A DNA stretch of 64,000 nucleotides from assembly GCF_029222925.1 (NCBI RefSeq), contig NZ_JARHUI010000002.1:310001-374000 (forward strand). Reading direction: 5' to 3'. Positions 6,237 to 49,161 of the stretch are shown here, in pieces. The notes under the pieces are model-generated. The model ran no database searches. It was not told the DNA's origin and saw only the letters and a list, made by a program, of their open reading frames with translations. This DNA comes from Algoriphagus sp. CAU 1675 (GTDB taxonomy: Bacteria; Bacteroidota; Bacteroidia; Cytophagales; Cyclobacteriaceae). How positions within the stretch are numbered: position 1 is the first letter of the stretch; each line of letters opens with the position of its first letter. The position numbers were made by a program, and so were the translations under genes.

Positions 6237-6446
6237 GGCAAGTGATTTCCCGGAGAAAATGATTTTTCAAAAACTAATTACCTGAATTTACTAAAAAACC
6301 TCCATCAATTTTGATTTCAGCTGTTCAAAACACTTGCGATTCTCATGCTTAAGTCCCATTGGCTTTCTTGGATTTTTCTTCAAAGGCCTTTTGTTGCCTA
6401 GAATTTAAATCATTAGATTTTGAAGCACTAACAAAAGTCCAAAACC

Positions 6447-7895: not shown

Positions 7896-7904
7896 ACTAC
7901 TTAT

Positions 7905-9092
7905 ATGAAAACCTTATTTTCAGCCCTATTCACCCTATTGTTCAGTCAATTCGCTATGTCCCAGCCTACTCCCAATTATGATGAAAGTAAAGTACCTGAT
8001 CTGGTTTTACCTGATCCTTTTGTAAGTGCCAAAGGAAAAATCATTCAGTCTGCCAAGGAATGGGAAGAAATCAGAAGACCTGAAATCTTCAGATTATTTG
8101 AAGAGCAGGTATATGGGAAAATCCCTACGGATTTGGATAATATCAGCTTTGAGGAGGTGAAGGAAAGTGAGAACCCCTACCCGGATCAGGCAATTCTGAA
8201 AGAAGTCAATATCACCGTATCGAGAAAAGGGCAACACTACACCATGCGTCTGAATGTATTTATTCCTAAATCCGGAAAAGGTCCATTTCCTGTGATTTTA
8301 TTGATTAATTACTCCCCAAAATACCCCAATGGGCAGATAGTGGAGGAAGGATTCTGGCCTGTTCCCGAGTTGATAGCGCAGGGTTTTGCAACTGCTTCCT
8401 TCCACGCTGAGACAGTTGCGCCAGATGACAAAATCAGATTTTCGGAAGGGATAATTTCAAAGCTGTACCCTGAACAACTTGAACAGGCAGATGGAATGCG
8501 GGCCTTGGGAGCCTGGGGATGGGGAGCCATGCGTGCCATGGATTACTTCGAAAATAGTGCTCTTTTTGACAGCGAAAAATCTGTCTTAGTAGGACATTCC
8601 AGAGCCGGAAAAGCGACCTTGTGGGCATCGGCCAACGATCCCCGATGGGCCGTAACTATTCCAAATGAATCCGGATGCGGAGGTGCTGCCCTTTCGAAAA
8701 GAAAATTTGGAGAAACAGTTCAGGTGATCAACACTAGCTTTCCTCACTGGTTCAATGACAATTTCAAATCCTATAACAACAAGGAAGAAGAGCTCCCCAT
8801 TGACCAGCATCTTTTGGTCTCCCTGATCGCTCCAAGAGCTATTTATTTCTCCAGCGCGCGGGAAGACCGCTGGGCAGATCCAAAAGGTGAATACCTTTCT
8901 TTGACTTTGGGTAGCAGAGTTTATCAGGAAATTTTCGGAAAGAAGGCAGTCTTCCCTCTTGAGTTTGAGGAATTACAGGGACCGATTCTGCAGCCTTCCA
9001 TGGGCTATCATATCCGGGAGGGCGAACATAATCTTACGCCTGAAGACTGGAAGCATTATTTGGAATTCATCAAACTCAACTTCAAAAATTAA
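7905..9092 (+). CDS. CE15-type glucuronoyl methylesterase / acetylxylan esterase-like
   Basis: A 395-residue secreted esterase with signal peptide MKTLFSALFTLLFSQFAMSQ. The nucleophile elbow GHSRAGK (Ser232, Arg233, Lys236) is the bacterial CE15 signature, followed by NESGCGGAALSKR. The catalytic His lies in REGEHNL (His375). CE15 enzymes cleave the ester between 4-O-methylglucuronate of xylan and lignin alcohols, though marine homologues may act on other uronate esters. N-terminal EIFRLFEEQVYGKIP is also family-typical. It is 9 bases downstream of the PqaA-type gene and upstream of the neuraminidase-like gene. Confidence 0.9.
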   Translation: MKTLFSALFTLLFSQFAMSQPTPNYDESKVPDLVLPDPFVSAKGKIIQSAKEWEEIRRPEIFRLFEEQVYGKIPTDLDNISFEEVKESENPYPDQAILKEVNITVSRKGQHYTMRLNVFIPKSGKGPFPVILLINYSPKYPNGQIVEEGFWPVPELIAQGFATASFHAETVAPDDKIRFSEGIISKLYPEQLEQADGMRALGAWGWGAMRAMDYFENSALFDSEKSVLVGHSRAGKATLWASANDPRWAVTIPNESGCGGAALSKRKFGETVQVINTSFPHWFNDNFKSYNNKEEELPIDQHLLVSLIAPRAIYFSSAREDRWADPKGEYLSLTLGSRVYQEIFGKKAVFPLEFEELQGPILQPSMGYHIREGEHNLTPEDWKHYLEFIKLNFKN

Positions 9093-9175
9093 AACGAAAC
9101 CCTAAAGCACGGGACAGAAATCCCATCAGTTTCCAATTCCTTGAAAAACTATACCTTTTAACCAAAGCACTTTCT

Positions 9176-10177
9176 ATGCAAGCCCTGATACTTTTCCTGC
9201 TTAGCCTAAGCCTATCAAACCAAACTGAAAAACCGGAAGTCAAAATCCTAAAGTCAGAATTCATTTATGAAACGGCTCCCTTTCCCCAATGTCATGCCTC
9301 TACTCTGATTGAAAATGAAGAAGGAATATTGGCAGCCTGGTTTGGAGGCACACATGAACGCCACCCGGATGTCAGCATTTATACTGCCCAACTGAATGGG
9401 GAGAAATGGTCAGAACCAAAAAAAGCAGCGGATGGGGTAGAAAATGAACAAACCCGATATCCAACGTGGAATCCGGTTCTTTATCGTTTGGATAATGGAA
9501 AAACCGTGCTTTTCTATAAAATCGGCCCCAATCCCAGAGAATGGTGGGGAGCCTATAAATTATCCGATGATTTAGGAAAAACTTGGTCAGAGGAAATCCC
9601 TCTCCCTGATGGAATTCTTGGTCCGATCAAGAATAAACCCGTAGCACTTTCGAATGGAAAAATACTGTATCCAAGTAGTTTGGAGACAGAGGAAAAATGG
9701 ACCATTCATGTAGAAAGCTCAGACTCAAACCTTGAAAACTGGAAAAAAACAGAGATTGAAAACGGGAAATTCAATGCCATCCAGCCAACTGTTTTCTTTC
9801 ATCCCGATGGCAGACTGCAAATGCTCTGTAGAACCCAGGAAGGGAAGATCGGTGTGACCTGGTCAGATGACCAAGGCGCAACGTGGACTCCCGTTCAGGC
9901 TACCAATTTGGTTCACAACAATTCAGGAATAGATGGGGTCACCCTCCAAAACGGATATCACCTTTTGCTCTGCAACCCGATTCCCAAAGGAAGAAACAAA
10001 CTATCCCTGATGGGCTCCACAGACGGAGTGAATTGGGAAGAATTGTTGGTGATGGAAGATGAGAAAAAGGGAGAATTCAGCTACCCGGCCATCATACAGG
10101 CTAGTGACGGCACTGTTCACCTGACCTATACCTATAACCGGGAAAAGGTGAAATATGCTCAGCTCAAAATCAATTAA
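9176..10177 (+). CDS. Predicted neuraminidase (BNR, COG4692-like)
   Basis: A 333-residue protein with a hydrophobic N-terminal segment (about residues 2-14) acting as a signal or anchor. One clear Asp-box is SDDLGKTW and another is SDDQGATW. The N-terminal motif FPQCHASTLIE and AAWFGGTHERHPDVSIY are characteristic of the COG4692 sialidase-like family, not of GH33. The exact glycosidic activity of this family is poorly defined; some members act on other acidic sugars. Only 5 bases separate its stop from the ATG of an N-acetylneuraminate lyase/DapA-family aldolase, which supports a role in acidic sugar release and catabolism. Confidence 0.8.
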   Translation: MQALILFLLSLSLSNQTEKPEVKILKSEFIYETAPFPQCHASTLIENEEGILAAWFGGTHERHPDVSIYTAQLNGEKWSEPKKAADGVENEQTRYPTWNPVLYRLDNGKTVLFYKIGPNPREWWGAYKLSDDLGKTWSEEIPLPDGILGPIKNKPVALSNGKILYPSSLETEEKWTIHVESSDSNLENWKKTEIENGKFNAIQPTVFFHPDGRLQMLCRTQEGKIGVTWSDDQGATWTPVQATNLVHNNSGIDGVTLQNGYHLLLCNPIPKGRNKLSLMGSTDGVNWEELLVMEDEKKGEFSYPAIIQASDGTVHLTYTYNREKVKYAQLKIN

Positions 10178-10182
10178 GGCTC

Positions 10183-11109
10183 ATGGATCTCCCTAAACCT
10201 TTCCGGGGCATCATTCCCCCCTTAATTACTCCTCTTCTGGCTGATTTGTCACTGGACCAAACATCACTGGAGAAAATCCTTGAGCATGTAATTGCCGGAG
10301 GAGTGGATGGAGTATTTATTTTGGGAACTACCGGTGAGGCCCCCTCCCTTTCCAAACAACTTAAAAAGGAACTGATCCAAGCAACTGGGGAGATGGTCAA
10401 TGGTAGAATACCTGTTTTGGTTGGGATTACGGATTGTTCTTTTGAGGAAAGTCTTGACTTGGCTGAATATGCCCGAAAGGCCGGCGCAAATGCATTGGTG
10501 GCTACTACTCCATTTTACATGAAAATTGGCCAGGATGAATTGGTTAATTACTTTCAAAAATTGGCTGATGCAGTGGATTTACCGCTTTTCCTCTACAACA
10601 TGCCCTCCCACACGCACTTATCCATTGCTGTGGAAAGGGTCAAGAAATTGAGCCAACATCCCAATATTGTTGGGATCAAGGACAGCTCCGGAGACCTGAC
10701 CTACTTTCAGGAACTTTGTGATGCTTGCAGAGAAATGCCTGAGTTTACGGTTTTGGTTGGACCAGAAGAAATACTCTTGGAAACCCTTCAAATGGGAGGA
10801 CATGGAGGAGTAACAGGAGGATCCAATCTCTTTCCAGACCTCTATGTTTCTGTGATGGAAGCCTTTGACAAAAACGATAAAGCCAGGGCATCTGAACTTC
10901 AGGAGTCTATCGGTTTTTTAAGCAAAAACCTTTACCATCACGGAGGCTATCCAAATGATTATCTCAAGGGGATCAAAGGAGCAATGGCCTTGGAGGGACT
11001 ATGCCAGAAATTCACGGCACTTCCCGTTATTCCTTTCAATGAATCTGAAATGAATACCTTATCCGAAAAGCTTGATACGGTGAAGGCCCAGCTCAGAAAC
11101 ATGATCTAA
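10183..11109 (+). CDS. DapA/NanA-family aldolase (dihydrodipicolinate synthase / N-acetylneuraminate lyase-like)
   Basis: A 308-residue TIM-barrel class I aldolase. GTTGE (residues 48-52), the phenolic Tyr in FLYNMP (Tyr138) and the Schiff-base Lys in GIKDSSG (Lys166) are all present. The motif GTTGEAPSL is closer to DapA or keto-deoxy-sugar aldolases than to NanA, which usually has GSTGE, so lysine synthesis versus sugar-acid cleavage cannot be settled from sequence alone. Context (5 bases after a neuraminidase-like gene, near sialidase and uronate-esterase genes) favours a catabolic sugar-acid aldolase. A terminator-like hairpin follows. Confidence 0.85.
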   Translation: MDLPKPFRGIIPPLITPLLADLSLDQTSLEKILEHVIAGGVDGVFILGTTGEAPSLSKQLKKELIQATGEMVNGRIPVLVGITDCSFEESLDLAEYARKAGANALVATTPFYMKIGQDELVNYFQKLADAVDLPLFLYNMPSHTHLSIAVERVKKLSQHPNIVGIKDSSGDLTYFQELCDACREMPEFTVLVGPEEILLETLQMGGHGGVTGGSNLFPDLYVSVMEAFDKNDKARASELQESIGFLSKNLYHHGGYPNDYLKGIKGAMALEGLCQKFTALPVIPFNESEMNTLSEKLDTVKAQLRNMI

Positions 11110-11134
11110 GAAATTTTATGGATTTTCATCCAAT

Positions 11135-11170
11135 AAAAAACCTCCGATTCTGATTGTATCGGAGGTTTTT
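11135..11170. terminator. Bidirectional intrinsic terminator
   Basis: The 8-bp stem CCTCCGAT/ATCGGAGG (11141-11148 and 11158-11165) has a 9-base loop. A-run on the left and T-run on the right give terminator function in both directions. It lies between the convergent aldolase gene and pntB. Confidence 0.85.
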
Positions 11171-11193
11171 CTTGAAGTATAAATCTATTTCAA

Positions 11194-12579
11194 TTACATA
11201 TCCTTCATTTCGGCCACTACCTTGGTAATGGTCTGCTTTGCATCTCCGAATAGCATCAGACAATTCGGATAGCCAAAGAGTTCATTTTCAATCCCAGCAT
11301 AACCTTTACCCATACTACGCTTACTGACAATGACCGTCTTGGCTTTATCTGCGTTCAGGATTGGCATACCATAGATAGGACTTTGAGGGTTGGTTCTTGC
11401 TGCCGGGTTGACCACGTCATTGGCACCAATCACAAACACCAGATCAGTATTTGGAAACTCATCATTGATGGCTTCCATTTCAATGAGTTTATCATAGGAA
11501 ATATTTGCCTCAGCCAGCAATACATTCATATGTCCAGGCATTCTACCTGCCACCGGGTGGATAGCGAATTTGAAATCAATATTTCTTTTTTCGCACTGTT
11601 CCATCAACTCACGTACGGCATGCTGTGCCTGGGCAACTGCCATACCATAACCTGGAACTACGATAACGGAAGAAACAGAGTCAAACAGCATGGCACTTTC
11701 CTCCACACCGATTTCCTTTATGACCATGGCTGGACCATCCTCTCCTTGTGTAGCTGCTGTCTGGCCAAAGCCTCCTAAAAGGACATTGGTCAGGGAGCGG
11801 TTCATCGCCTTACACATGATCTGAGTAAGGATAATACCGGAAGCTCCAACCAGAGAACCTGCAACGATCAACACGTTATTGTTCAAAATGAAGCCCGTTG
11901 CGCAAGCTGCCATACCTGAATAGGAATTGAGCAGGGAAATCACAACCGGCATATCTGCACCGCCGATTGGAATCACGATCAATACCCCAACGAGCAGGGA
12001 AAGGACCACCAACAAAGAGATATAAAGCGGATCGGTTTGATACATATAGGTAAACACCGCCGCAATCAGGAATGAAATCAGCAACACCAAATTGAGCGCA
12101 TGCTGGCCCTTAAAGGTGATGGGTGAGCCGGAAATTTTTCCATTCAGCTTCATCCAGGCCACTACGGATCCGGTAAAGGTTACCCCCCCGATCAGGACAC
12201 TGAGAATGATACTGACGGAATTGACTGCATCCAGCTGAGTCCCCAAAATCTCGGTTTTGAAGAAGTGGTCAGAAAGGGCCACCCCAAATGAGGCCAGGCC
12301 ACCAAAGCCGTTGAAAAGGGCCACCATTTCTGGGATTTTGGTCATTTCCACCTTTTTGGCGTAATACAGACCGATAGTCCCACCCAATAGCATACAGATG
12401 AAAATTTCGGTCAAAGAGACAACTTCCAGTGTCAGCAGAGTTGCTACAATAGCAATGAGCATACCGACAGAAGAAAGCATATTTCCCTTTCTGGCATCCT
12501 TTGTTTTTCCCAAAAATTTAATTCCCAGGATAAATAAAACGGAGGCAACGAGGTAGGCGATTTGTGTGGTTATACTCAT
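11194..12579 (-). CDS. pntB: NAD(P) transhydrogenase beta subunit
   Basis: A 461-residue membrane protein. The N-terminal two thirds form about nine transmembrane helices of the proton channel (domain II). The C-terminal third is the NADP(H)-binding domain III, with GYGMAVAQAQHAVREL, HPVAGRMPGHMNVLLAEA, VIGANDVVNPAA and KRSMGKGYAGIEN. The complex couples inward proton movement to hydride transfer from NADH to NADP+, giving NADPH. Its ATG overlaps the stop of the preceding small subunit by 4 bases, so the two are translationally coupled. Confidence 0.95.
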   Translation of the reverse strand: MSITTQIAYLVASVLFILGIKFLGKTKDARKGNMLSSVGMLIAIVATLLTLEVVSLTEIFICMLLGGTIGLYYAKKVEMTKIPEMVALFNGFGGLASFGVALSDHFFKTEILGTQLDAVNSVSIILSVLIGGVTFTGSVVAWMKLNGKISGSPITFKGQHALNLVLLISFLIAAVFTYMYQTDPLYISLLVVLSLLVGVLIVIPIGGADMPVVISLLNSYSGMAACATGFILNNNVLIVAGSLVGASGIILTQIMCKAMNRSLTNVLLGGFGQTAATQGEDGPAMVIKEIGVEESAMLFDSVSSVIVVPGYGMAVAQAQHAVRELMEQCEKRNIDFKFAIHPVAGRMPGHMNVLLAEANISYDKLIEMEAINDEFPNTDLVFVIGANDVVNPAARTNPQSPIYGMPILNADKAKTVIVSKRSMGKGYAGIENELFGYPNCLMLFGDAKQTITKVVAEMKDM

Positions 12580-28460: not shown

Positions 28461-28890
28461 AAATCAAAAGAAAAGAAGAGGATTTTCAAGCTTATTGAAA
28501 TCTTAAGCAGATTTTAAGAATTTTCTAAAACCCCCAAAAAGGCACTTTTCGTATAAGTTTTTAGAAAATCAAAGCTCATGTTTCCCTACAATTTAAAAAA
28601 GGGGATATCTTGTTATTTAAATTTTTTATTAAAGTATGTTTTTTTGAATGCTTTATTTTAAATAACATTAAAAATACAATGTAACCTTATTCGTATTTTT
28701 TTACGTTAACTCAAACAAAAACAGGTTCTTTAAAATAAGTTTTAAAAATTGGCGCGATTTTCGTTTTAGTATGCATGCAGCCTTTTTAGAAAAACCTGCA
28801 TCTCTTAATAGAGAAGGGTTCGACAAAAGGAGGCAAAATGAAAACCAACCAACCACAAAAAATGAATATCCACTTCTAAACCACAAAACT
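28461..28890. other. Long AT-rich intergenic region
   Basis: 430 bases without a credible gene. Contains a perfect 10-bp inverted repeat, GTTATTTAAA at 28612-28621 and TTTAAATAAC at 28657-28666, with a 35-base spacer; it could be an operator or a weak hairpin. An upstream in-frame start at 28771 exists for the next gene but is not preferred. No clear TAnnTTTG box recognised. Confidence 0.5.
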
Positions 28891-30324
28891 ATGAACAAGC
28901 AACATTTCAATCGATGGGCTTTTGCCCTGGTAGCAGGAATACTCCTGTTGACTGGTTTGGGGGCTCAAAAAGCAAAAGCTGAAAGCTATAACGGCTATAT
29001 AGGTGTTTCCTTTCAGGTATTCTATGATGAATTGATGCCCTACGGGGACTGGGTAAGAGACGCAAGATATGGATATATCTGGCTTCCTGCCGTAGGACCT
29101 GACTTCCATCCTTATGGATCAAATGGACACTGGGCCATGACCGAATACGGTAATACTTGGGTATCTTATTACGATTGGGGCTGGGCTCCTTTCCATTACG
29201 GAAGATGGTATTTCGATGACTACTACCAAAGCTGGGCCTGGATTCCTGGATACGACTGGGGACCTGCCTGGGTAAGCTGGAGAAGTGGCGGAGGATACTA
29301 TGGATGGGCTCCTTTGGGACCGACTGTTTCCGTAAATGTTCGAATAGGAATCCCAAGTTTCCATTGGGTATTTCTTCCCCAGGTTAGGATCTATGACCGA
29401 TATGCCTACCGTCATTATGCACCTTACAGAAATCGGGTGAAGATCATCAACAGAACGACCATCATCAACAACACTGTAGTGTATAATAACAACACTTACA
29501 TCAGTGGTCCTAACAGAAGAGAGATCGAACGCGTGACTCGAAGAGCAGTTCCTGTGTACCAGCTTCGCGCAAGTAACAGACCAGGAAGAGCCGCTATGAG
29601 CAGAAACGCTGTAGACATGTATCGTCCGGAAATAAATGCATCCAGAGGAAGAACCGCAGATGCCAGACCTTCTAGAGTGGTTGAACCAAATCAGGCTAGA
29701 TCCAACCGGTCAACTTATGCGACCCCTTCTTCTAGAAATGCAAACCAGGGCTCCAGAACTCAGACTAGATCTGCCACTCCTTCTAGTAGAGGAAATCAGG
29801 GAGGTTCAAGAGTCAACTCTGCTCCTTCCAGATCCTCAAATTCAGGAGTAAGATCTGCCAACCCTTCAAGCGGGAGAGGCTCTGAATTCCAGACCAAGCC
29901 CTATCAGGACAACAGAAGCAGAACTTCTGCCCCAAGTCAAAGCAGACAGAGATCAGTAGGAACCCAGTCCAGTCCTTCCAGACAGAACAACGTTCGTACC
30001 GCTCCTAGCCAGCAAAGACAAAGCAACGTAAGAACTGCCCCTAGTCAGCAGAGACAAAGCAACGTAAGAACTGCCCCTAGTCAGCAGAGACAGAGTAATG
30101 TGAGGACTGCTCCTTCTCGTTCAAACTCCCAGGTTCGCTCTTCAAGCAGAACCCAAACTTCAAGACCAGCGGTAAAACAATCCGCCCCTAGCAGACAGAG
30201 TGGAGCGAGAGTTTCGAGTCAAAGTTCAAGAAGCAGCGCCCCTAAAGTGAGCAGAACAAGCCCTAGCAGAAGCAGCTCCTCTACAGGAAGCAGAAGTTCA
30301 AGAGGAAACAACAGAGGTAATTAA
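28891..30324 (+). CDS. DUF6600-type protein with Ser/Arg-rich repetitive tail
   Basis: A 477-residue exported protein. The start at 28891 gives a good signal peptide (about residues 9-30, ending AKAES); the longer frame from 28771 adds a polar, non-signal N terminus. Residues about 30-180 are a Trp/Tyr/Gly-rich domain with repeated GYIWLP, WGWAPFHYGRWYFDD, WAWIPGYDWGPAWVSWR and YYGWAPLGP, as in DUF6600. From about 270 on the protein is low-complexity, rich in Ser, Arg, Gln and Pro, with a 12-residue tandem repeat (see 29986). Likely cell-surface or periplasmic, possibly binding polyanions; function unknown. Confidence 0.8.
   Translation: MNKQHFNRWAFALVAGILLLTGLGAQKAKAESYNGYIGVSFQVFYDELMPYGDWVRDARYGYIWLPAVGPDFHPYGSNGHWAMTEYGNTWVSYYDWGWAPFHYGRWYFDDYYQSWAWIPGYDWGPAWVSWRSGGGYYGWAPLGPTVSVNVRIGIPSFHWVFLPQVRIYDRYAYRHYAPYRNRVKIINRTTIINNTVVYNNNTYISGPNRREIERVTRRAVPVYQLRASNRPGRAAMSRNAVDMYRPEINASRGRTADARPSRVVEPNQARSNRSTYATPSSRNANQGSRTQTRSATPSSRGNQGGSRVNSAPSRSSNSGVRSANPSSGRGSEFQTKPYQDNRSRTSAPSQSRQRSVGTQSSPSRQNNVRTAPSQQRQSNVRTAPSQQRQSNVRTAPSQQRQSNVRTAPSRSNSQVRSSSRTQTSRPAVKQSAPSRQSGARVSSQSSRSSAPKVSRTSPSRSSSSTGSRSSRGNNRGN
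29986..30120 (+). repeat. 36-bp tandem repeats inside the DUF6600 gene
   Basis: Three full 36-bp units (29986-30021, 30022-30057, 30058-30093) and a partial fourth encode S/N-N-V-R-T-A-P-S-Q-Q-R-Q. Units 2 and 3 are nearly identical at DNA level, suggesting recent slippage or unequal exchange. The repeat keeps frame. Confidence 0.9.
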
Positions 30325-30457: not shown

Positions 30458-33400
30458 ATGAAGCGATTTATAGCCATTTGCTTATTTATTTTACAATCTT
30501 CAGCTTTTGCCCAAACAAGCTTTGATTCAAGTCTTCCCATCAAATACCGAAACATTGGGCCATTCCGAGGTGGAAGGTCTGTGACAGCCACCGGAGTGAT
30601 GAATGACCCCCTTACCTATTACTTCGGTACTACGGGAGGCGGACTTTGGAAAACCACCGATGCAGGGCAGCATTGGAACAATATTTCCGACGGATTTTTT
30701 AAAACAGGTTCTGTGGGAGCCGTAGCCGCATCCGAATCCAACCCCAATATCCTCTACGTGGGTATGGGAGAGCATCCCCCACGCGGAGTGATGAGTTCCT
30801 ATGGGGATGGAGTCTATAAATCCACCGATGCTGGCAAAACCTGGAAGAAAATAGGCCTGGAGAAAACCCAGCATATCTCAAGAATCCAGATCCACCCTAG
30901 CAATCCGGACATCGTCTATGTCGCTGCACAGGGAACCCTGTATTCTCCAAATGAAGAACGAGGCATCTACAAATCCACTGATGGAGGTCTGACTTGGGAG
31001 AAAGTCCTTTTTGTAGACAACATGACCGGAGCCGTGGAATTATCCATGGACATGAACTTTCCGGAAATCCTCTATGCCGCCATGTGGGAGCATCAGCGTT
31101 TCCCTTGGCAGGTCAAATCTGGAGGCCCGGGATCGAATCTCTACAAATCAACCGATTCAGGAAAGACCTGGAAAAAACTCGAAAATGGACTTCCTGCCGA
31201 GAAAGGGAAAATGGCCATTTCAGTCTCAAGAGCCAATTCGAACAAGGTTTATGCCTTGATAGAAAGTGACACCTACAAGGATTTGGGAGGCCTCTTTGTA
31301 TCCAACGATGGAGGAGAAAACTGGACCTTGGTGAATAAGGACAATCGATTGACGCAAAGAGCCTGGTATTACATCGAGGTATTTGCTGATCCTCAAAATG
31401 AAAACAAGGTCTATGTGCAGAGCGCTCCCATGTTGGTATCCATTGATGGAGGAAAGAACTTTGAGAGCATCGATGGTGCACATGGAGATTACCACGATCT
31501 CTGGATCAATCCCAACAATCCGAACAACCTGATCCTTGCTGATGACGGTGGTGGATCCATTTCTTTCAACGGTGGTAAAACCTGGTCCACCCAAAACAAC
31601 ATGCCTACCTCCCAATTCTACCGGATCAATGTAGACAATCAATTCCCTTACCGAATCTATGGTGGACAGCAGGACAATACTTCCGTGGTGATTTCCAGCT
31701 TGGCTTTGGGACGTGGAAACATTACCCAGGAACACTGGAATTACTCCGCAGGTGGGGAATCTGCCTTTCTGGCCTTCGATCCGGATGATCCAAGATATGT
31801 GCTTGGAGGCAGCTACCAAGGCACGATTGAAGTTTTGGACATGCAGACTCAGGGCTCAACCAATATCATGGCGGCTCCCATCCAGTATCTTGGGATGGAC
31901 GCCAAGGACATGAAATACCGCTTCAACTGGAATGCACCTATCATTTGGTCCCAGCATGAACCGAACACCTTTTACCACGGGGCACAAGTCCTGCTCAAAA
32001 CCCAGGATTGGGGAAAAACCTGGACAGAGGTTTCTCCTGATCTGACCAGAAACGAAAAAGAAAAGCAGGGAAAAGCTGGGGTTCCATTTACCAATGAAGC
32101 TGTGGGAGCGGAAAACTACGGAACACTGGCTTATGTGATAGAATCTCCGCATGAAGCCGGAGTGATCTGGACCGGATCTGATGATGGATTGGTGCAACTG
32201 ACCCGGGATTTTGGCAAGACCTGGATCAATGTCACTCCAAAGGGCCTACAGGAATGTCTGGTTAATGCCATTGAGGTTTCTCCTCACGATCCTGCCACAG
32301 CTTATATCGCTACCACCCGTTACAAGTTCAACGACCATACTCCGGGCATCTACAAAACCACCGACTACGGAAAGACCTGGACCAATATCTCCAAGGGAAT
32401 TCCTTATGGAGCCTTTACCCGGGTAGTGCGGGAAGACACCGAGAAAAAGGGGCTGCTCTTTGCAGGAACTGAGTTGGGCATGTACATCTCCAAGGACGGC
32501 GGTGCCAACTGGACTCCTTTTCAACTCAACTTACCGATCACACCTATTACGGATCTCAAAGTGGCCCACAATGACCTGATCGTGGCAACCTCTGGCCGCT
32601 CCTATTGGATTCTGGATGAACTGAATGTAGTCAGAGAACTTCAACCCAAGGTTGAAAACATCACGCTCTACACTCCGGAAGACGCACTTTTGGGCAACTG
32701 GTATTCTTCCATGAACGGAGGAAATCTGGACGACTTTACAGGAATGAGTTCCGATGGAGGATTGAACCCTGCCAATGGAATGGTCATTTACTATCACCTG
32801 CCGGAAAATATCAGCGATTCCACCGAGCTGACCTTGGAATTCTTGGACGCCAATGGCAATCTGGTAAGAAAGCTATCTTCCAAAAAAGATCCCGAATCCA
32901 AAACCTGGGCAGGAGGTCCTCCAGCTGCAGCTACAATTTCTGCACGAAAAGGCCTGAACCGATTTGTCTGGGATTTGCGCTACCCTACCCTGCCGGGAAT
33001 TCCAGGAGTCTATATAGAATCCAGTTACCGAGGTCACAAGGCCATCCCGGGAACCTATACCGTGAAGCTAAGCGGAGGGGGAATCAGCACGGAAGCAAAA
33101 GCGGAAATCAAGGACATCCCTGCCTATAAGCTAACTCAAGCCGATTATCAGGCCTATCATGAGTGGATGAGCCAATTGGAATCCGAGGTGATAACCATGC
33201 ATACGATGGTCAATACCGCCAAGGACTATCAGGATCAATTGGCAGGTCTCTTGAAAAAACTGGAAGGAAATGAAGCCCTTCAAGGCCTCAAAAGCGAGGG
33301 AGAAAAGCTGATCAAAGAACTCAAGGCTTGGGATGAAAACATGGTCCAGAGAAGATCCACAGCTTATGATGATGTAGAAAACTTCCCCAATAAATTCAGC

Positions 33401-33598
33401 GCCAACTTTATGTTTATGATGAACCATGGAGAAAGCTCCATTCCTAGAGTCAACGAAGGTACCAAAGCCGAATATGCACGGTTAATGGAAGAGTGGGAAC
33501 CGCTAAAAGCCGAAGGTGATCGATTGATCCAAACTGCTATTCCAGCCTTTAATAAGCTGGCAAATGAAGCTGGAGTTGGGGTATTGTTTGTGAAGTGA
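30458..33598 (+). CDS. Large BNR/VPS10-like secreted beta-propeller protein
   Basis: A 1046-residue secreted protein with signal peptide [19 protein letters not shown]. Residues about 25-740 hold many Asp-box motifs ([56 protein letters not shown]), consistent with two seven-bladed propellers as in sortilin/xyloglucanase-like proteins. A beta-sandwich follows ([20 protein letters not shown]), then a helical C-terminal part (from about 890). Despite 'glycosyl hydrolase' annotations of such proteins, no catalytic pair is evident; binding, or peptide and surface processing, are equally possible. Confidence 0.85.
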
Positions 33599-42773: not shown

Positions 42774-42806
42774 GGTCTTTTGGGTTTAATTTAAATCCAT
42801 CAGCAA

Positions 42807-42951
42807 AGCCTTTCGAAGGCTTCAACCTCCGTTTGGATTATCCTGACCAAGTCCGTCAGGGAAACTCCACGATTTGCATATTTTAAGACACATCCGATGA
42901 AAAACTTCCCCAGCCATCTTTTCTACCTAGTTTTTGGAGCACTCCTCTTCT
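42807..42951 (+). pseudogene. Truncated duplicate of serine hydrolase promoter and first codons
   Basis: This stretch aligns with 47482-47626, the upstream region and start of the serine hydrolase gene at 47572. Bases 42891-42944 are identical to 47566-47619 (54 bases), covering ATG at 42898 and the signal-peptide codons; upstream similarity is weaker. After about 18 codons the match ends and no hydrolase coding follows, so this is a broken copy. A 4.7-kb segment lies between the two copies. Confidence 0.85.
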
Positions 42952-43196: not shown

Positions 43197-43451
43197 ATGA
43201 AAAACAAAAAAATCTTCTTATCCTTTACCGTAGCATTGGTATTCTCTTTCCAAATTAGCCTATTTGCCGACTGCGGACTTCCACCTTCCGAAGGATGCGA
43301 ACTTATTTCAGGAGGGGGGCCTTGTTCAGGCGATCCTGATGCTTCAGTATACCTTTGTAACGGAAATATTCAAGTTTATAGCACGCTTCTTCCAAGTGGA
43401 GGTTGTGCAGGTTCACATAGTGATTGCATGTCCACTCCTACTCTCGGATAA
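43197..43451 (+). CDS. Small secreted six-cysteine peptide
   Basis: An 84-residue precursor. Residues 1-24 are a clear Sec signal (MKNKKIFLSFTVALVFSFQI...SLFA), leaving a mature peptide of about 60 residues with six Cys (26, 34, 43, 54, 70, 77), rich in Gly, Ser and Pro with little charge. Six Cys suggest three disulfides. It heads an operon of three lipoproteins; the next gene starts 22 bases later. The arrangement resembles NVEALA-type peptides upstream of 6-bladed propeller lipoproteins in Bacteroidales, but the NVEALA motif is absent. Possible roles: bacteriocin-like toxin, signalling peptide or ligand. Not recognised as a known family. Confidence 0.75.
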   Translation: MKNKKIFLSFTVALVFSFQISLFADCGLPPSEGCELISGGGPCSGDPDASVYLCNGNIQVYSTLLPSGGCAGSHSDCMSTPTLG

Positions 43452-43473
43452 ACCACAGGATATCAATTACTTC

Positions 43474-44637
43474 ATGAGAAAAACCTTCTTATACACACTA
43501 TTTGCCTTAATCGTCTTAACGTCGTGCAAAAGTGAAAAAGGAAAAGCTGGGATCGGGTTTGAAAGCAATCTGGTCCTGGCAGATTCTTTAATTTTACATT
43601 TGGATGAAAAATCAACTTCCGAATTTAATTATCATCAAATTAGTGAATTTGCGAAAAATGAATCGTTTTTAAATTTAAATCTGGTCAATCAAAGTTTAGA
43701 TTTTTATTCATTAGAAACTGGAAAGTTAATATATAGAATACCCTTAAATTCTCACGGCCCAGAAGTAGTGCCTAACTTGGGTGGTTTTTTTTTCCATAAT
43801 AAGGATAGCATTTTTATACTTCCAAAAATGTCGCTTTTTAATACCACTCTAATTGATTTAAATGGAAACTTTTCTAAAGGATATTCTCCTATTTCTCATG
43901 AAGATCAATTAGTTCCAGGTTTAATTAATCACTTTTCGAATTCAGCAAATCCAACTTATTTTATAAAAAACTCTTTATATTTTGATCAAGGAATCTTGAA
44001 AAACACCGCAGCTCCGGGTGTACTCGCTGAGAACTATCGATTATCCGGTAGATTTAATCTTGATACTGATTCTGTATTTTTGTTTCCAAAATCTGGATTC
44101 CCTCACTTCTATCAAGATAAAACCTTCCCTATCTATCTTTCTGTTTCTTCTCGAATTTTAGATTCTGAATTACAATGGATTTATTCTTGGAACGCTTTAG
44201 ACAGTATTCTGATTTTCGATTTGGAAATGGAAAATAAAAAATCTTTTTATTCAAAGAGCAAATACCGAGATCAAAACTTCCCAAGCATAGCCAATGCTGG
44301 ACCTTCTGAGAGTCTTGAACTTATTATTTCAAATACTCATTATTGCAAAATCATACATGATCCATACAGAAAACGATACTTAAGATTTGTTCAACTGGGC
44401 AGAAACTTCGATCCCTATACAGACAACTCAATTTCCTCGGTATTCAAAAATGATTTCAGTATTATGATTTATAATGAAAATTGGGAACTGCAAGACGAAT
44501 ATTTTTTCAATGGTAATATTTACAATTTATACCATTCCTTTATCGGAAAAAAAGGACTTTATATGCCTAAAACAAATCCTTTTTACACGAGTCTAGATGA
44601 GGACAATGTAGTATTCGATATTTTTGAAATCAAATGA
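43474..44637 (+). CDS. DUF4221-type lipoprotein
   Basis: A 387-residue lipoprotein (lipobox LTSC, Cys18). The start at 43474 is chosen for the signal peptide; the longer frame from 43264 overlaps the peptide gene and has no signal. The pattern DSLILHLDEKSTSEFNYHQI, NLVNQSLDFYSLETGKLIYRI and GFFFHNKDSIFIL matches Bacteroidota DUF4221 proteins, thought to form a beta-propeller. Function of the family is unknown. Its stop overlaps the next ATG (ATGA at 44634-44637), showing translational coupling. Noticeably A+T-rich. Confidence 0.75.
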   Translation: MRKTFLYTLFALIVLTSCKSEKGKAGIGFESNLVLADSLILHLDEKSTSEFNYHQISEFAKNESFLNLNLVNQSLDFYSLETGKLIYRIPLNSHGPEVVPNLGGFFFHNKDSIFILPKMSLFNTTLIDLNGNFSKGYSPISHEDQLVPGLINHFSNSANPTYFIKNSLYFDQGILKNTAAPGVLAENYRLSGRFNLDTDSVFLFPKSGFPHFYQDKTFPIYLSVSSRILDSELQWIYSWNALDSILIFDLEMENKKSFYSKSKYRDQNFPSIANAGPSESLELIISNTHYCKIIHDPYRKRYLRFVQLGRNFDPYTDNSISSVFKNDFSIMIYNENWELQDEYFFNGNIYNLYHSFIGKKGLYMPKTNPFYTSLDEDNVVFDIFEIK

Positions 44638-45047
44638 AGTATATCTACCTTCTAGCAATTCTCAGTCTATTTTGCTGTAAAAAATCGAGTTCTCAAGAAA
44701 ATAAAATCGAAGAGTATCTTGACACGTTGGAAATCCCAAAGTCAAATAAGGTGCTGATTATTTACATAGACGGGTGTACTAGCTGTTTTGTAAATCATAA
44801 GACCCTTACTGAAGAAGCAAGTAAAAACGATGAATATCAAATAATCGTGGTCACTAAAAGCAGAAAAAAAGCGGTTTTATTACTAGGAGAAGATCTTATT
44901 CCTAAAGTTTATCTTGATACGGATTTAATAGCTGTTGAATCAGGCTTAGTCAGTGGATTTCCAGTGGTTTTTTCTTTCAGTGAAGATGGCCGCTTAATGA
45001 ATGTGACACAGATCGATTACTCATCGAAAAATCTATCCCTACCATGA
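44634..45047 (+). CDS. Small lipoprotein with CxxC (thioredoxin-like) motif
   Basis: A 137-residue lipoprotein; lipobox SLFC/LFCC gives Cys14 or Cys15. After it, VLIIYIDGCTSCFVNHKTL (Cys48, Cys51) looks like a thioredoxin-fold strand followed by a C-x-x-C active site. A later FPVVFSF matches the cis-Pro region expected of that fold. I infer a membrane-tethered thiol-disulfide enzyme. With a six-Cys secreted peptide in the same operon, an obvious hypothesis is disulfide formation or isomerisation of that peptide. It overlaps both neighbours by ATGA. Confidence 0.65.
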   Translation: MKYIYLLAILSLFCCKKSSSQENKIEEYLDTLEIPKSNKVLIIYIDGCTSCFVNHKTLTEEASKNDEYQIIVVTKSRKKAVLLLGEDLIPKVYLDTDLIAVESGLVSGFPVVFSFSEDGRLMNVTQIDYSSKNLSLP

Positions 45048-46090
45048 AAAATCCCATACTATTTTTGCTTGTATTGGTATTTCTTTCCTGTAATTCCCAA
45101 TCTAATTCATTTTTTGATGATTGCATGAAGCCCGATTTTTCGCCATTCGTTATCTCGGATATCTATTTAGAAATAGAACCCGCTATCAGAAATTTTGGGT
45201 TTGAACTAAAAAAGACCAGTGATGGAGGATATATATTTTTCGTCCCTTTTTGGGGAGACGCATACAAATTCTCACCAGATCGGAAAATTGAATTCAAATT
45301 GTCTTTTAATTCAAAATCGCTCTCAGAAAATAAGGAGCGTATTAATTATATCAGTGGAACAACTCCAGCTTTTGATGTTTTTGGAGATAATATCTACTTC
45401 CTACAAAGTAATCGGACAATAAAAATCTATAATCTTCAAGGGAAAGAGGTAACTAATTACTCGTTGAACATTACTGATATAAGTATTGATGACATGGAAG
45501 TCATTGGTGAGGATATAGTTATTTTGAGTGGTACGCAGGTTGTAGAAGACAAGGTAGTCTTGAGTTTTTTCAAAATGAATTTAGTTGAAAACACACTAGA
45601 AACCATCGAAAAGATTGATCTAAAAACAAGAAAGAACCCATTTTTCATAAAATTCAATGAAAATGAGGCACAGGTACTCATCGAAAGAGATTCAAGCATC
45701 ACAGAATTGGATTTTGAAAAAAGAAGTATTCACAATATTAGTTTTAATCAGGCCAAAAATCGTGATTACAATAAGTATGATATTCCAATTGACGTTGATT
45801 ATATTTCTCTTCCAGAAGAAGAACAACGAAAATATCGAAATGATAAAACGATAAAATTCGGTTTTAATGAAAGTGAATTGATAATCTTACACGAGGTGGC
45901 AAACAAATCGAAAAGCGGCAAACCTTATGAAAAATTGTTAACGAAACACTCTTTACCAAACGGAAAGGTGCATGAAAAATTAGGATTAGAGGGGATAATT
46001 GACTTTGATAAATGTGGAAACATCCTTCAAATTGAGGAAATCAACGGTGAATACTACATAAGTATTAAGTCTTTTGAATCTGTTAAGTAA
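45044..46090 (+). CDS. Beta-propeller-like lipoprotein, last gene of peptide operon
   Basis: A 348-residue lipoprotein (lipobox LSC, Cys16). Repeated short motifs (GDNIYFLQSNRTIKIYNLQGKEV; GEDIVILSGTQVV; FNENEAQVLIERD) recall the 6-bladed propeller/BF3164-type lipoproteins of Bacteroidota that accompany NVEALA-type peptides. It may be a periplasmic or surface receptor, or immunity partner. Its ATG overlaps the previous stop by 4 bases. No enzymatic residues identified. Confidence 0.65.
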   Translation: MKNPILFLLVLVFLSCNSQSNSFFDDCMKPDFSPFVISDIYLEIEPAIRNFGFELKKTSDGGYIFFVPFWGDAYKFSPDRKIEFKLSFNSKSLSENKERINYISGTTPAFDVFGDNIYFLQSNRTIKIYNLQGKEVTNYSLNITDISIDDMEVIGEDIVILSGTQVVEDKVVLSFFKMNLVENTLETIEKIDLKTRKNPFFIKFNENEAQVLIERDSSITELDFEKRSIHNISFNQAKNRDYNKYDIPIDVDYISLPEEEQRKYRNDKTIKFGFNESELIILHEVANKSKSGKPYEKLLTKHSLPNGKVHEKLGLEGIIDFDKCGNILQIEEINGEYYISIKSFESVK

Positions 46091-46640
46091 AAATCCATTC
46101 TTTCATTAGCATTCAAAGAGAGTTACCTCCCCTCTGACGATAGTTTCTGTTTGAATGACAAAAATTCGGTGACTAGGAGTAGTTTGCAACCATGCTTTAC
46201 AATTCCAACGAATTTGTAATTCGATTTACCATCTCCTCACCCCCTCTGAGCATAGATTCTGTTTGAATGAAAAAAAGCCGGTGACTAGGCGTAGTTTACA
46301 CCTCCCCCCACCCCTCCAAAACAATTCTTCGCAATCTTCTGTCAGAGCGGGCTTGGTGGAAAAGGCTGAAGATTATTTATATTCCAGTGAAAAAAATTAT
46401 GCAGGTCTGAAAGGGCTGATAGATGTAGATTACTGGTAGTTGGGATGTGTATGGCCAATTGCAAATTGGCTTGGATATTAGGGTGAAGTTACAAACTTCA
46501 CCCAGCGTCCAATTGGACTTCAAAGATTCAGGGCAGAAACTACGCCTTTCCATCCCTACGAATGAGTAATTCGATCCCACTCTGATCCTTGATTTTACTA
46601 CCTCCCATTTATAGATCAATCCCAATAACTACTGAAAAAT
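46091..46640. repeat. Intergenic repeat array with degraded REP-like elements
   Basis: No gene. Two direct repeats of roughly 65 bases (about 46126-46191 and 46231-46300) share TTCTGTTTGAATGA and GGTGACTAGG-GTAGTTT. Within, CGAATT-tgt-AATTCG (46209-46223). A full forward doublet follows: GCCAATT-gca-AATTGGC (46454-46470), linker TTGGATATTA, and GGGTGAAGTT-aca-AACTTCACCC (46481-46503). Then a partial reverse element around 46543-46575. Confidence 0.75.
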
Positions 46641-46828: not shown

Positions 46829-47479
46829 ATGGCCACTTTACCCAACTCCAATGTAATCCTGCCTAAAGGAAAACTCGGAAACCTGGTTTTCTACACCTTG
46901 AACGGCAAGACAGTCGTTCGTAGCAGGCCCTCACAAAATCACAAAAACAAGCACAATCCCAGCCCTCTGCAGCTTATCCAACGGGAAAAACTCAAGACTA
47001 TCAATGCCTTTCTCAAGCCCATCAAATATGCCCTGGACTTCGGTTATCAGGAATTCCTAACCCAAAGCAAAAAGGGGATACACTTGGCCTACTCCGAAAT
47101 CAACACCAAGGGATACAATTATACCCGGGAACCAAGAATCGATCCTGCATTTTTGCGCATCAGTAAGGGAAATTTGCTAGGGCCAGAGAATCCTCAGGCC
47201 ACTAAAAAAGGGAATTCGGTAGAATTCACTTGGACGGACAATTCCAAGGAAGGTAAAGCCCGGGAAACTGATGAAAGCTTTATTTTGCTCTATAGTCCTG
47301 AGGAAAAGAAATTTATTTGGGCAGAAACCCGGTTTCGAAGAAATTTAACTCAAGGTGTAATTGAGTTGGGCCCGGAAAAATCAACCATCAACTGGCATGT
47401 CTACATGGCATTCAGCCAGCTGGATATAAAAACCAAGAAATATCAGCTCTCGGATTCGGTATATTTGGGAAAGCTGTGA
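46829..47479 (+). CDS. DUF6266 family protein
   Basis: A 216-residue protein with no signal peptide. The N-terminal segment GKLGNLVFYTLNGKTVVRSRPS is the hallmark of DUF6266, a Bacteroidota family of unknown function, some members of which contain a C-terminal Ig-like part (here from about 125: EFTWTDNS..., IELGPEKSTINWHVYMAF). It is located between the repeat array and the intact serine hydrolase copy. Confidence 0.8.
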   Translation: MATLPNSNVILPKGKLGNLVFYTLNGKTVVRSRPSQNHKNKHNPSPLQLIQREKLKTINAFLKPIKYALDFGYQEFLTQSKKGIHLAYSEINTKGYNYTREPRIDPAFLRISKGNLLGPENPQATKKGNSVEFTWTDNSKEGKARETDESFILLYSPEEKKFIWAETRFRRNLTQGVIELGPEKSTINWHVYMAFSQLDIKTKKYQLSDSVYLGKL

Positions 47480-47571
47480 AAATCCTTTCAAAGGCTTGAT
47501 CCTGTGTTTGGATTATTCAGAGCAAGTCCATTAGTGGAACCAAACCATTTTCACATTTTAAGTCTCATCCG

Positions 47572-49161
47572 ATGAAAAACTTCCCCAGCCATCTTTTCTA
47601 CCTAGTTTTTGGAGCACTCTTATTCTCATGCAATCCAAAGCCAACAAGTGATGTTGACACTAAATCCACAACTCATCTTTTTTCAGACACCTACCAAAAG
47701 CCGTTTTTTGAGCAGGATGACCGAGTAGAAAGGATAAAAAAGATTGCACCTGAACTGGAAAAGTTGATGGCTGATTATGCAAAGTCCCGAAATATTCCGG
47801 GTATTGCATACGGAATTGTGGTCGACAACCAACTCGTGATTTCCTTTGCAACTGGCTTGATGAATCTTGAGCAGAAAAGCCCGGCCAGCCCCAGCGCTTC
47901 TTTTCGAATTGCATCCATGAGCAAGAGTTTTACGGCCATGGCCATTGTAAAACTACGGGATGAAGGCAAATTGTCCTTAAGCGATCCGGTCAGTAAATAC
48001 ATCCCTGAAATGGCTAATCTTAAGTACCTGACCCAAGATGCACCGTCCATAGCTATTGAAAACCTCTTGACCATGACCTCCGGATTTCCGGAGGACAATC
48101 CCTGGGGGGACCGTCAATTGGATGAATCTGACCAAATGCTGATGGACATGATGACAGAGGGGGTCTCCTTTTCCAATGTTCCCTCCTATGAATACGAGTA
48201 TAGCAACACGGGTTATGCCCTACTCGGGAATATTATTTCCCGGGTCTCGGGAATGCCCTATCAGGAATACATCACGCAAAACATTCTATTGCCTTTGGGC
48301 ATGGAGCAAACCTATTGGGAATACGACCAGGTCCCTCCTGGTCAACTGGCAATTGGGTATCGTTGGGAGGATGAGGAATGGAAATTGGAACCCATGCTTC
48401 ACGACGGGTCTTTTGGAGCCATGGGAGGTTTGATTACCTCCATAGAGGATTTCAGTAAATACGTCAGTTTTCATCTTTCTGCCTGGCCTCCAAGAAGTGA
48501 TGTGGACGATGGTCCTATTCGTAGGAGTTCACTAAGAGAAATGCAAACACCACAATTCCCCAGACTAAACGCCAATGCAAGAAACTTTAGCGGTGAACCC
48601 TGTCCTGCTATTTCCGGGTACGGCTATGGCCTTGGCACCATAGAAAACTGTGATGGATTGAAAAGAGTCGGACACGGTGGAGCGCTACCGGGTTTTGGAA
48701 GCAATTATGTTTTCTTTCCCGAATATGGGATCGGAATCATGGCTTTTTGTAACCTGACCTATACCAGCCCTTATCCACTCAATGAGATTGGGAAATTGGT
48801 ATTTGAAACTGCAGGTCTGAAACCAAGACAATTACCTGTTTCGGATATTCTGCGTGAACGCCAAGAACAGCTCACTCAATTAATTCAAAAATGGGACACG
48901 GATTTGGAGGAAAAAATCCTGGCTGAGAATTTTTATCTGGATAAATCCAGAGCGCATAGGATCCAAGAAGTGCAAGGTGTTTTGGAACAAGCCGGAGCTA
49001 TCCTTTCCATTGGAGAGCTTTCACCTCAAAATCAGCTTAGAGGCGGTTATAAAATTCAAACCCAGAATGGAGAAATCGGAATTTTCTTTACACTAACCCC
49101 TGAAAAAGACCCCAAAGTGCAACAATTGGACATCTTATTTCTATCAAAGGAATCTGAGTAA
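47572..49161 (+). CDS. Serine hydrolase (class C beta-lactamase-like) lipoprotein
   Basis: A 529-residue lipoprotein (lipobox LFSC, Cys20). Active-site motifs: S-x-x-K as SMSK (Ser115, Lys118), Y-x-N as YSNTG, and H-G-G as HGGALPGF. A C-terminal extension of about 120 residues (from LKPRQLPVSD) is longer than in plain beta-lactamases and is seen in esterase/peptidase relatives. Likely a periplasmic esterase, peptidase or transpeptidase-like enzyme rather than an antibiotic-resistance enzyme. Its start is duplicated at 42898. Confidence 0.9.
   Translation: MKNFPSHLFYLVFGALLFSCNPKPTSDVDTKSTTHLFSDTYQKPFFEQDDRVERIKKIAPELEKLMADYAKSRNIPGIAYGIVVDNQLVISFATGLMNLEQKSPASPSASFRIASMSKSFTAMAIVKLRDEGKLSLSDPVSKYIPEMANLKYLTQDAPSIAIENLLTMTSGFPEDNPWGDRQLDESDQMLMDMMTEGVSFSNVPSYEYEYSNTGYALLGNIISRVSGMPYQEYITQNILLPLGMEQTYWEYDQVPPGQLAIGYRWEDEEWKLEPMLHDGSFGAMGGLITSIEDFSKYVSFHLSAWPPRSDVDDGPIRRSSLREMQTPQFPRLNANARNFSGEPCPAISGYGYGLGTIENCDGLKRVGHGGALPGFGSNYVFFPEYGIGIMAFCNLTYTSPYPLNEIGKLVFETAGLKPRQLPVSDILRERQEQLTQLIQKWDTDLEEKILAENFYLDKSRAHRIQEVQGVLEQAGAILSIGELSPQNQLRGGYKIQTQNGEIGIFFTLTPEKDPKVQQLDILFLSKESE

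What the first reader, a model, noticed from the sequence alone, without database searches (positions are those of the whole stretch)
43197..46090. Four-gene operon: six-cysteine secreted peptide, DUF4221 lipoprotein, CxxC lipoprotein, propeller lipoprotein
Seen: an 84-residue secreted precursor with six Cys is followed 22 bases later by three lipoproteins linked by two successive ATGA overlaps. The middle one has Cys48-x-x-Cys51 in a thioredoxin-like context. Known: Bacteroidota small peptides (NVEALA type) accompany 6-bladed propeller lipoproteins, and DUF4221 is of unknown role. Inference: the CxxC lipoprotein folds the peptide's disulfides while the propeller-like lipoproteins act as receptors, immunity or export partners; a bacteriocin-like or signalling system. 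The operon is AT-rich, lies among repeats and is bracketed by a duplicated gene start, so it appears acquired.
Basis: partly seen in the sequence, partly recalled or inferred. Interest (0 to 1): 0.78.

Follow-up and report, generated by a model that had tools for sequence, protein, structure and literature searches.

The report
Secreted cysteine-peptide cassette with lipoprotein partners
In an Algoriphagus bacterium four genes in a row encode a small secreted peptide, probably held together by disulfide bonds, and three membrane-anchored partner proteins; the same four-gene set recurs across the bacterial family, so it is a real and apparently undescribed functional unit, but what the peptide does is unknown.

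Summary
At 43197-46090 lie an 84-aa secreted precursor with six mature Cys, a DUF4221 lipoprotein, a 137-aa Cys48-x-x-Cys51 lipoprotein and a fourth lipoprotein, tightly packed. (1) A search with the CxxC protein alone found it in 41 of 295 genomes and 23 of 83 genera of the family; every copy inspected has DUF4221 directly upstream, and most have a Cys peptide before and a further lipoprotein after. (2) The CxxC protein is predicted to have a thioredoxin fold (ResA/CcmG-like), gene 4 a beta-propeller. Peptides nearly always carry an even number of Cys, and the genome lacks DsbB and VKOR, so a dedicated disulfide enzyme is plausible. In two relatives the CxxC domain is fused to gene 4. Corrections: recent acquisition is not supported; the peptide is not NVEALA; no known surface-export signal was found; sister cassettes lack the CxxC gene. 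Most likely a secreted disulfide-stapled peptide with its own periplasmic maturation/binding set; toxin or signal is open. New variant of the Bacteroidota 'Cys peptide + propeller lipoprotein' loci.

The parts
43197..43451 (+). 84-aa Sec-secreted peptide precursor; mature part of about 60 aa with six Cys (C-x7-C-x8-C-x10-C-x15-C-x6-C)
   Evidence: relatives in L045, L046, L047 and others; dN/dS 0.225; no Pfam, NCBIfam or PDB match
43474..44637 (+). DUF4221 lipoprotein
   Evidence: PF13970 E 8e-21; profile of its relatives hits solved DUF4221 structure 3s9j, E 7.5e-51
44634..45047 (+). CxxC lipoprotein, predicted thioredoxin-like fold, Cys48-x-x-Cys51 and Pro110
   Evidence: C48 invariant, C51 and P110 nearly invariant in 30 relatives; AlphaFold2 pLDDT 85; PDB matches ResA and CcmG
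45044..46090 (+). fourth lipoprotein, predicted beta-propeller, distant relative of DUF4221
   Evidence: AlphaFold2 pLDDT 82; 3s9j is PDB match no. 2; hhalign with DUF4221 prob 91.5, E 8.8e-7
42805..42951 (+). partial copy of the start of the serine-hydrolase-like gene at 47572 (84% to 47480-47626)
46129..46337 (.). intergenic repeats downstream of the operon; related copies at five other places in the genome

Best explanation
The operon is one functional unit. It makes a Sec-exported peptide (read from sequence) that is stapled by two or three disulfides (inferred from Cys parity) and acts outside the cytoplasm, together with its own set of lipoproteins. The thioredoxin-like CxxC lipoprotein is the local thiol-disulfide partner that oxidises or shuffles the peptide's Cys (inferred). 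The two propeller lipoproteins bind the peptide or the CxxC protein and hold it for maturation, release or self-protection (inferred); DUF4221 is the constant partner of the peptide, gene 4 the physical partner of the CxxC domain. The likeliest final role is action on other cells, as a bacteriocin-like or signalling peptide; which of the two is not decided.
For: Search by the CxxC sequence alone: 41 of 295 genomes, 23 of 83 genera; every family CxxC ORF inspected has DUF4221 immediately upstream on the same strand, often overlapping by 4 bases; 33 of 49 ORFs passed the strict peptide filter and 32 of 49 the gene-4 filter. Cys peptide upstream: 41 of 64 DUF4221 genes against 12 of 245 control genes, many of these 12 being lipoprotein genes themselves or next to a cassette. 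Mature Cys number even in 37 of 40 peptides; the three exceptions look like errors of my cleavage-site rule. Thioredoxin-like fold and propeller fold. Fusion of CxxC domain and gene-4-like propeller in one 447-aa protein (L054, L055). Peptide divergence tracks DUF4221 best (Mantel rho 0.68; partial 0.56 given gene 4). Genome lacks DsbB and VKOR while the controls ring; its only DSBA match has no signal peptide. Bacteroidetocin precedent: a thiol oxidoreductase gene beside a 4-Cys peptide, needed for full activity (PMC6671954).
Against: Sister cassettes without a CxxC gene (L048-L051, L053) have six-Cys peptides too, so the CxxC protein is not required for such peptides. One family member has CPSS instead of CxxC (L101) while its peptide keeps four Cys. 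The nearest folds, ResA and CcmG, are reductants in their own systems (general knowledge). No transporter or dedicated protease is in the operon, so release across the outer membrane is unexplained. The L047 peptide has three Cys. The Mantel values are inflated by common descent.
Confidence: 0.5

Rival explanations
1. Toxin and immunity: the peptide is a bacteriocin-like antagonist; one or both propeller lipoproteins neutralise it in the producer, from the periplasmic side.
For: Patchy distribution, very diverse peptides with a conserved partner, and several peptide + lipoprotein units side by side (L046, L056, L101, L123, L133). No known surface-export signal, so the lipoproteins may face the periplasm.
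Against: 350-aa propellers are unlike known small immunity proteins (general knowledge); no export or lysis gene; the peptide is under purifying, not diversifying, selection between close species (dN/dS 0.225); no telling PADLOC or phage-family match.
Confidence: 0.3
2. Peptide signalling: the peptide is a pheromone read by the propeller lipoproteins.
For: Several distinct peptide + propeller pairs in one genome (this window, L012, L014) would suit multiple private channels; the peptide tracks DUF4221.
Against: I saw no transmembrane sensor or regulator that recurs with the cassettes; lipoproteins alone cannot pass a signal inward; no known export signal to the surface.
Confidence: 0.2
3. The peptide is not a messenger but a small subunit of a periplasmic redox or metal-handling complex with the propellers and the thioredoxin-like protein; its Cys may bind metal.
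For: CxxC domain fused to a gene-4-like propeller (L054, L055); ResA/CcmG-like fold; some peptides end in C-x2-C-x3-C or similar.
Against: Cys spacing varies widely between peptides, unusual for a metal site; the peptide sequences vary strongly between cassettes.
Confidence: 0.2
4. A recently acquired, selfish or decaying island with no shared function among the four genes.
For: Low GC, repeats and a duplicated gene start around it; different neighbours in most genomes.
Against: In A. hitonicola the same four genes follow directly on the two genes whose homologues lie about 10 kb upstream here, with the same low GC (0.324); purifying selection on all four; fixed gene order across genera.
Confidence: 0.05

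Closest known systems
NVEALA peptide loci of Bacteroidales (PF14055) with DUF4221 or other propeller-type lipoproteins
   Same: Small Cys-bearing secreted-type peptides directly before lipoprotein genes, often in tandem; in L214 NVEALA peptides lie next to a DUF4221 gene (5e-68 to my profile) and CxxC-bearing proteins with weak similarity to my CxxC profile lie nearby in L214-L216.
   Different: No NVEALA motif or PF14055 match here or in the whole genome; the leader is an ordinary signal peptide; the CxxC lipoprotein here is a short separate gene fixed between the two propellers.
Bacteroidetocins (class IIf bacteriocins; PMC6671954)
   Same: Four-gene locus with a small peptide of four Cys and a thiol oxidoreductase gene, in a phylum whose Bacteroides members are said to lack general disulfide machinery.
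   Different: Those have a 15-aa double-glycine leader, a peptidase-containing ABC transporter and a five-TM protein; here a Sec signal peptide, no transporter and two propeller lipoproteins.
DUF4221 family, solved as 3s9j (BVU_1028)
   Same: Gene 2 is a member; gene 4 has a related predicted fold.
   Different: I found no known function; six of the ten DUF4221 copies in this genome lie in an array without peptides (L011).
ResA / CcmG (TlpA-like) thiol-disulfide oxidoreductases
   Same: Thioredoxin-like fold and CxxC position.
   Different: Only moderate TM-scores (about 0.42); no Pfam thioredoxin model reaches its cut-off for the window protein; a 137-aa lipoprotein always next to DUF4221; direction of its redox reaction unknown.

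Membership tests
DUF4221 (PF13970) | Gene 2 matches above the Pfam gathering score | tested here: met
   75.4 bits against 23.4
DUF4221 (PF13970) | Gene 4 matches above the Pfam gathering score | tested here: not met
   No Pfam match; only remote similarity by profile and fold
NVEALA peptides (PF14055) | Match to the NVEALA model | tested here: not met
   No match for the peptide nor anywhere in the genome
NVEALA peptides (PF14055) | Peptide gene next to a propeller lipoprotein gene | tested here: met
   Gap of 22 bases to DUF4221; similar layout in L214
Bacteroidetocins | Double-glycine leader | tested here: not met
   Leader is a hydrophobic Sec-type signal peptide ending in ISLFA
Bacteroidetocins | Peptidase-containing ABC transporter and TM protein in the locus | tested here: not met
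   None seen among the ORFs around the operon (read by eye); genes either side of the operon are S41 and DUF6266
Bacteroidetocins | Thiol oxidoreductase gene beside a Cys peptide | tested here: met
   CxxC lipoprotein with predicted thioredoxin-like fold two genes downstream; activity not tested
Thioredoxin-like thiol-disulfide oxidoreductases | Thioredoxin fold with CxxC at the start of a helix after the first strand and a Pro before a later strand | tested here: met
   Strand 39-44, helix 49-63, C48/C51, P110 before strand 111-115
Thioredoxin-like thiol-disulfide oxidoreductases | Redox activity on a substrate | not testable with these tools
   Needs an enzyme assay
Surface-exposed Bacteroidota lipoproteins | Export signal after the lipid Cys (C-X-K-(D/E)2 or S-D-D type) | tested here: inconclusive
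   0 of 44 CxxC and 0 of 65 DUF4221 proteins carry either motif, but the signal is not defined for Cytophagales

The most novel reading that the evidence does not exclude
A widespread, undescribed class of Bacteroidota systems in which a Sec-exported disulfide peptide works between cells with a dedicated lipoprotein triad (two propellers and a thioredoxin-like oxidase) that stands in for the missing general disulfide machinery and for a dedicated transporter or immunity protein.
Probability: 0.3. Interest if true: 0.78.

Novelty: new variant of a known kind. Interest (0 to 1): 0.55.

Why it matters
Small Cys-rich peptides beside propeller lipoproteins recur in Bacteroidota but I found no known role for them, and the held library has no paper that mentions NVEALA or DUF4221. 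A compact cassette with a defined peptide, a fixed partner set and natural variants (with and without the CxxC gene, with a CxxC-propeller fusion) makes the question testable in culturable environmental species, and would show how bacteria without DsbB or VKOR handle secreted disulfide peptides.

Tried and rejected
Defence or phage origin: PADLOC and PHROGs gave only weak matches, the phage one being a generic thioredoxin domain. NVEALA membership: rejected. Recent acquisition: orthologues of the gene at 47572 lie in quite different surroundings in six relatives, so no empty site could be shown; the A. hitonicola and G024 comparison points instead to a resident locus. A search for named relatives with the broad CxxC alignment failed for lack of a conserved stretch; the DUF4221 alignment found only A. 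hitonicola and A. marinus. Promoter and terminator scans did not exceed shuffles. Weak class-wide CxxC hits include thioredoxin-like and other proteins without DUF4221 beside them and were not counted. Paper searches on NVEALA, DUF4221, PF14055 and DUF5128 found nothing relevant.

Full report
Observation. The four genes are present as described. The peptide precursor (43197-43451) is MKNKK...ISLFA followed by a mature part of 60 residues with six Cys; the DUF4221 gene starts 22 bases later; the next two starts overlap the previous stops as ATGA. PF13970 hits gene 2 at 8e-21; the other three genes have no meaningful Pfam or NCBIfam match.

Host. A degenerate search with close DUF4221 relatives found A. 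hitonicola (85%) and A. marinus (60%), whose contig lengths and identities fit G015 and G026, genomes of the window's own genus. The window therefore comes from an Algoriphagus species.

Conservation. The genus search with gene 2 led to loci in which the same order recurs: A. hitonicola (L045), A. marinus (L046), G001 (L056), G039 (L057), G043 (L058 with a shortened CxxC frame, and L060), G056 (L059); G013 (L047) has peptide, DUF4221 and CxxC without gene 4. A profile of the CxxC protein alone, run over 295 genomes of the family, rang in 41 genomes and 23 of 83 genera. I fetched 40 places. Wherever the CxxC ORF could be called, DUF4221 lies directly upstream on the same strand; the search did not use adjacency, so this is an independent result for the loci outside the eight seeds. 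By strict filters 33 of 49 ORFs had a Cys peptide and 32 of 49 a further lipoprotein-size ORF downstream, 26 both; the filters miss real cases, the window itself among them, because of the start codon chosen. One of the 49 ORFs is a false label (L064, a DUF4221 protein).

Is the peptide association more than chance? In the same loci 41 of 64 DUF4221 genes have a small secreted-type ORF with at least four Cys upstream, against 12 of 245 other genes of at least 250 aa; many of those twelve are again in front of lipoproteins, two of them tested DUF5128 propellers, or beside a cassette. The loci were chosen around these families, so the Fisher value should be read as a contrast, not as a genome-wide probability. 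Mature Cys numbers are mostly 4 or 6, even in 37 of 40; the three odd counts come from my simple cleavage rule cutting behind a Cys. The L047 peptide, outside that filter, has three. In L047 the third and fourth Cys of the window peptide are both gone while the last two remain, which fits C3-C4 and C5-C6 pairing (inference).

Structures. The CxxC protein model (pLDDT 85) has a strand, CxxC at the start of the long helix, strand, helix, strand, and a conserved Pro before the next strand: a thioredoxin-like fold, best PDB matches ResA and CcmG. The TM-scores are moderate (about 0.42), so this names the fold class, not a close relative. Gene 4 (pLDDT 82) is a propeller, with the DUF4221 structure 3s9j as second match, and hhalign also links it to DUF4221. 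The DUF4221 profile matches 3s9j at 7.5e-51.

Partners. In L054 and L055 a CxxC domain and a gene-4-like propeller form one 447-aa protein, which suggests that these two parts work together. Distances between cassettes correlate for all gene pairs; the peptide follows DUF4221 most closely (0.68; 0.56 after removing gene 4). Common descent contributes to all these values.

Disulfides. The genome has no DsbB or VKOR match, although the controls ring; its single DSBA match is a protein without a signal peptide. Bacteroidetocin loci offer a precedent in the same phylum: a 4-Cys peptide with a thiol oxidoreductase gene whose deletion weakens activity (PMC6671954). Against an obligate role, cassettes in G046, G070 and G025 have six-Cys peptides without any CxxC gene, and L101 carries CPSS instead of CxxC.

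Location. None of the lipoproteins carries the export signal known from other Bacteroidota (PMC5080379). This speaks weakly for a periplasm-facing position and against a surface receptor; the signal has not been defined in Cytophagales.

Acquisition. GC of the operon is 0.332, but that of the A. hitonicola copy is 0.324 as well, and there the cassette follows directly on the homologues of window genes 28771-30324 and 30458-33598; in G024 a DUF4221 + gene-4-like pair lies between the same two genes. So the cassette is an old resident of this neighbourhood, with about 9.6 kb lying between here, rather than a fresh arrival. On a longer time scale it does move: most genomes have it among other neighbours.

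Wider view. Outside the family the CxxC-DUF4221 pair appears in a few genomes, there at times preceded by a 150-170-aa Cys-bearing lipoprotein (L170, L177, L178). In Bacteroidales, NVEALA peptides stand before DUF4221 and other lipoproteins with CxxC proteins nearby. The window cassette is thus a distinct variant of a Bacteroidota-wide layout for which I found no known function.

Verdict. Shown: a conserved four-gene unit with a secreted-type even-Cys peptide, under purifying selection. Predicted: two propeller-type lipoproteins and a thioredoxin-like fold. Inferred: disulfide bonds, maturation by the CxxC protein, binding by the propellers. Open: toxin, signal or complex subunit.

Noticed in passing
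L011 (G000:C1:164000-180000), 4933-11807: Six DUF4221-type lipoprotein genes in tandem in the same genome, without any Cys peptide beside them.
   Followed up: partly
L012 5414-6899 and L014 4822-6300: Two further pairs of a Cys-rich secreted peptide and a DUF4221 lipoprotein elsewhere in the same genome, with unrelated peptides.
   Followed up: partly
L056 8193-13338: Three tandem units of a 63-68-aa Cys peptide and a lipoprotein (DUF5128 propeller in the two tested) just downstream of a full four-gene cassette.
   Followed up: partly
L096 5407-9633: A transposase-like ORF (8057-9262) sits between the peptide and DUF4221, and gene 4 is broken: a cassette in decay.
   Followed up: no
L101 3189-3578: CxxC family member with CPSS in place of CxxC, while its peptide keeps four Cys.
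   Followed up: no
L170, L171, L172, L173, L177, L178: In other families a 150-170-aa Cys-bearing lipoprotein, a 380-436-aa protein (DUF4221-like in L170, L177, L178) and a CxxC protein stand in the same order.
   Followed up: partly
L214-L216, L218: NVEALA arrays also hold proteins that look like signal peptidases and repeated 540-680-aa proteins near the CxxC proteins.
   Followed up: no
window 43197-43451: The peptide gene has GC 0.431, while the three lipoprotein genes behind it have 0.31-0.35; it also has fewer synonymous changes (pS 0.24 against 0.39-0.43).
   Followed up: no
window 46829-47479: DUF6266 gene between the operon and the serine-hydrolase-like gene whose start is duplicated upstream of the operon.
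   Followed up: no
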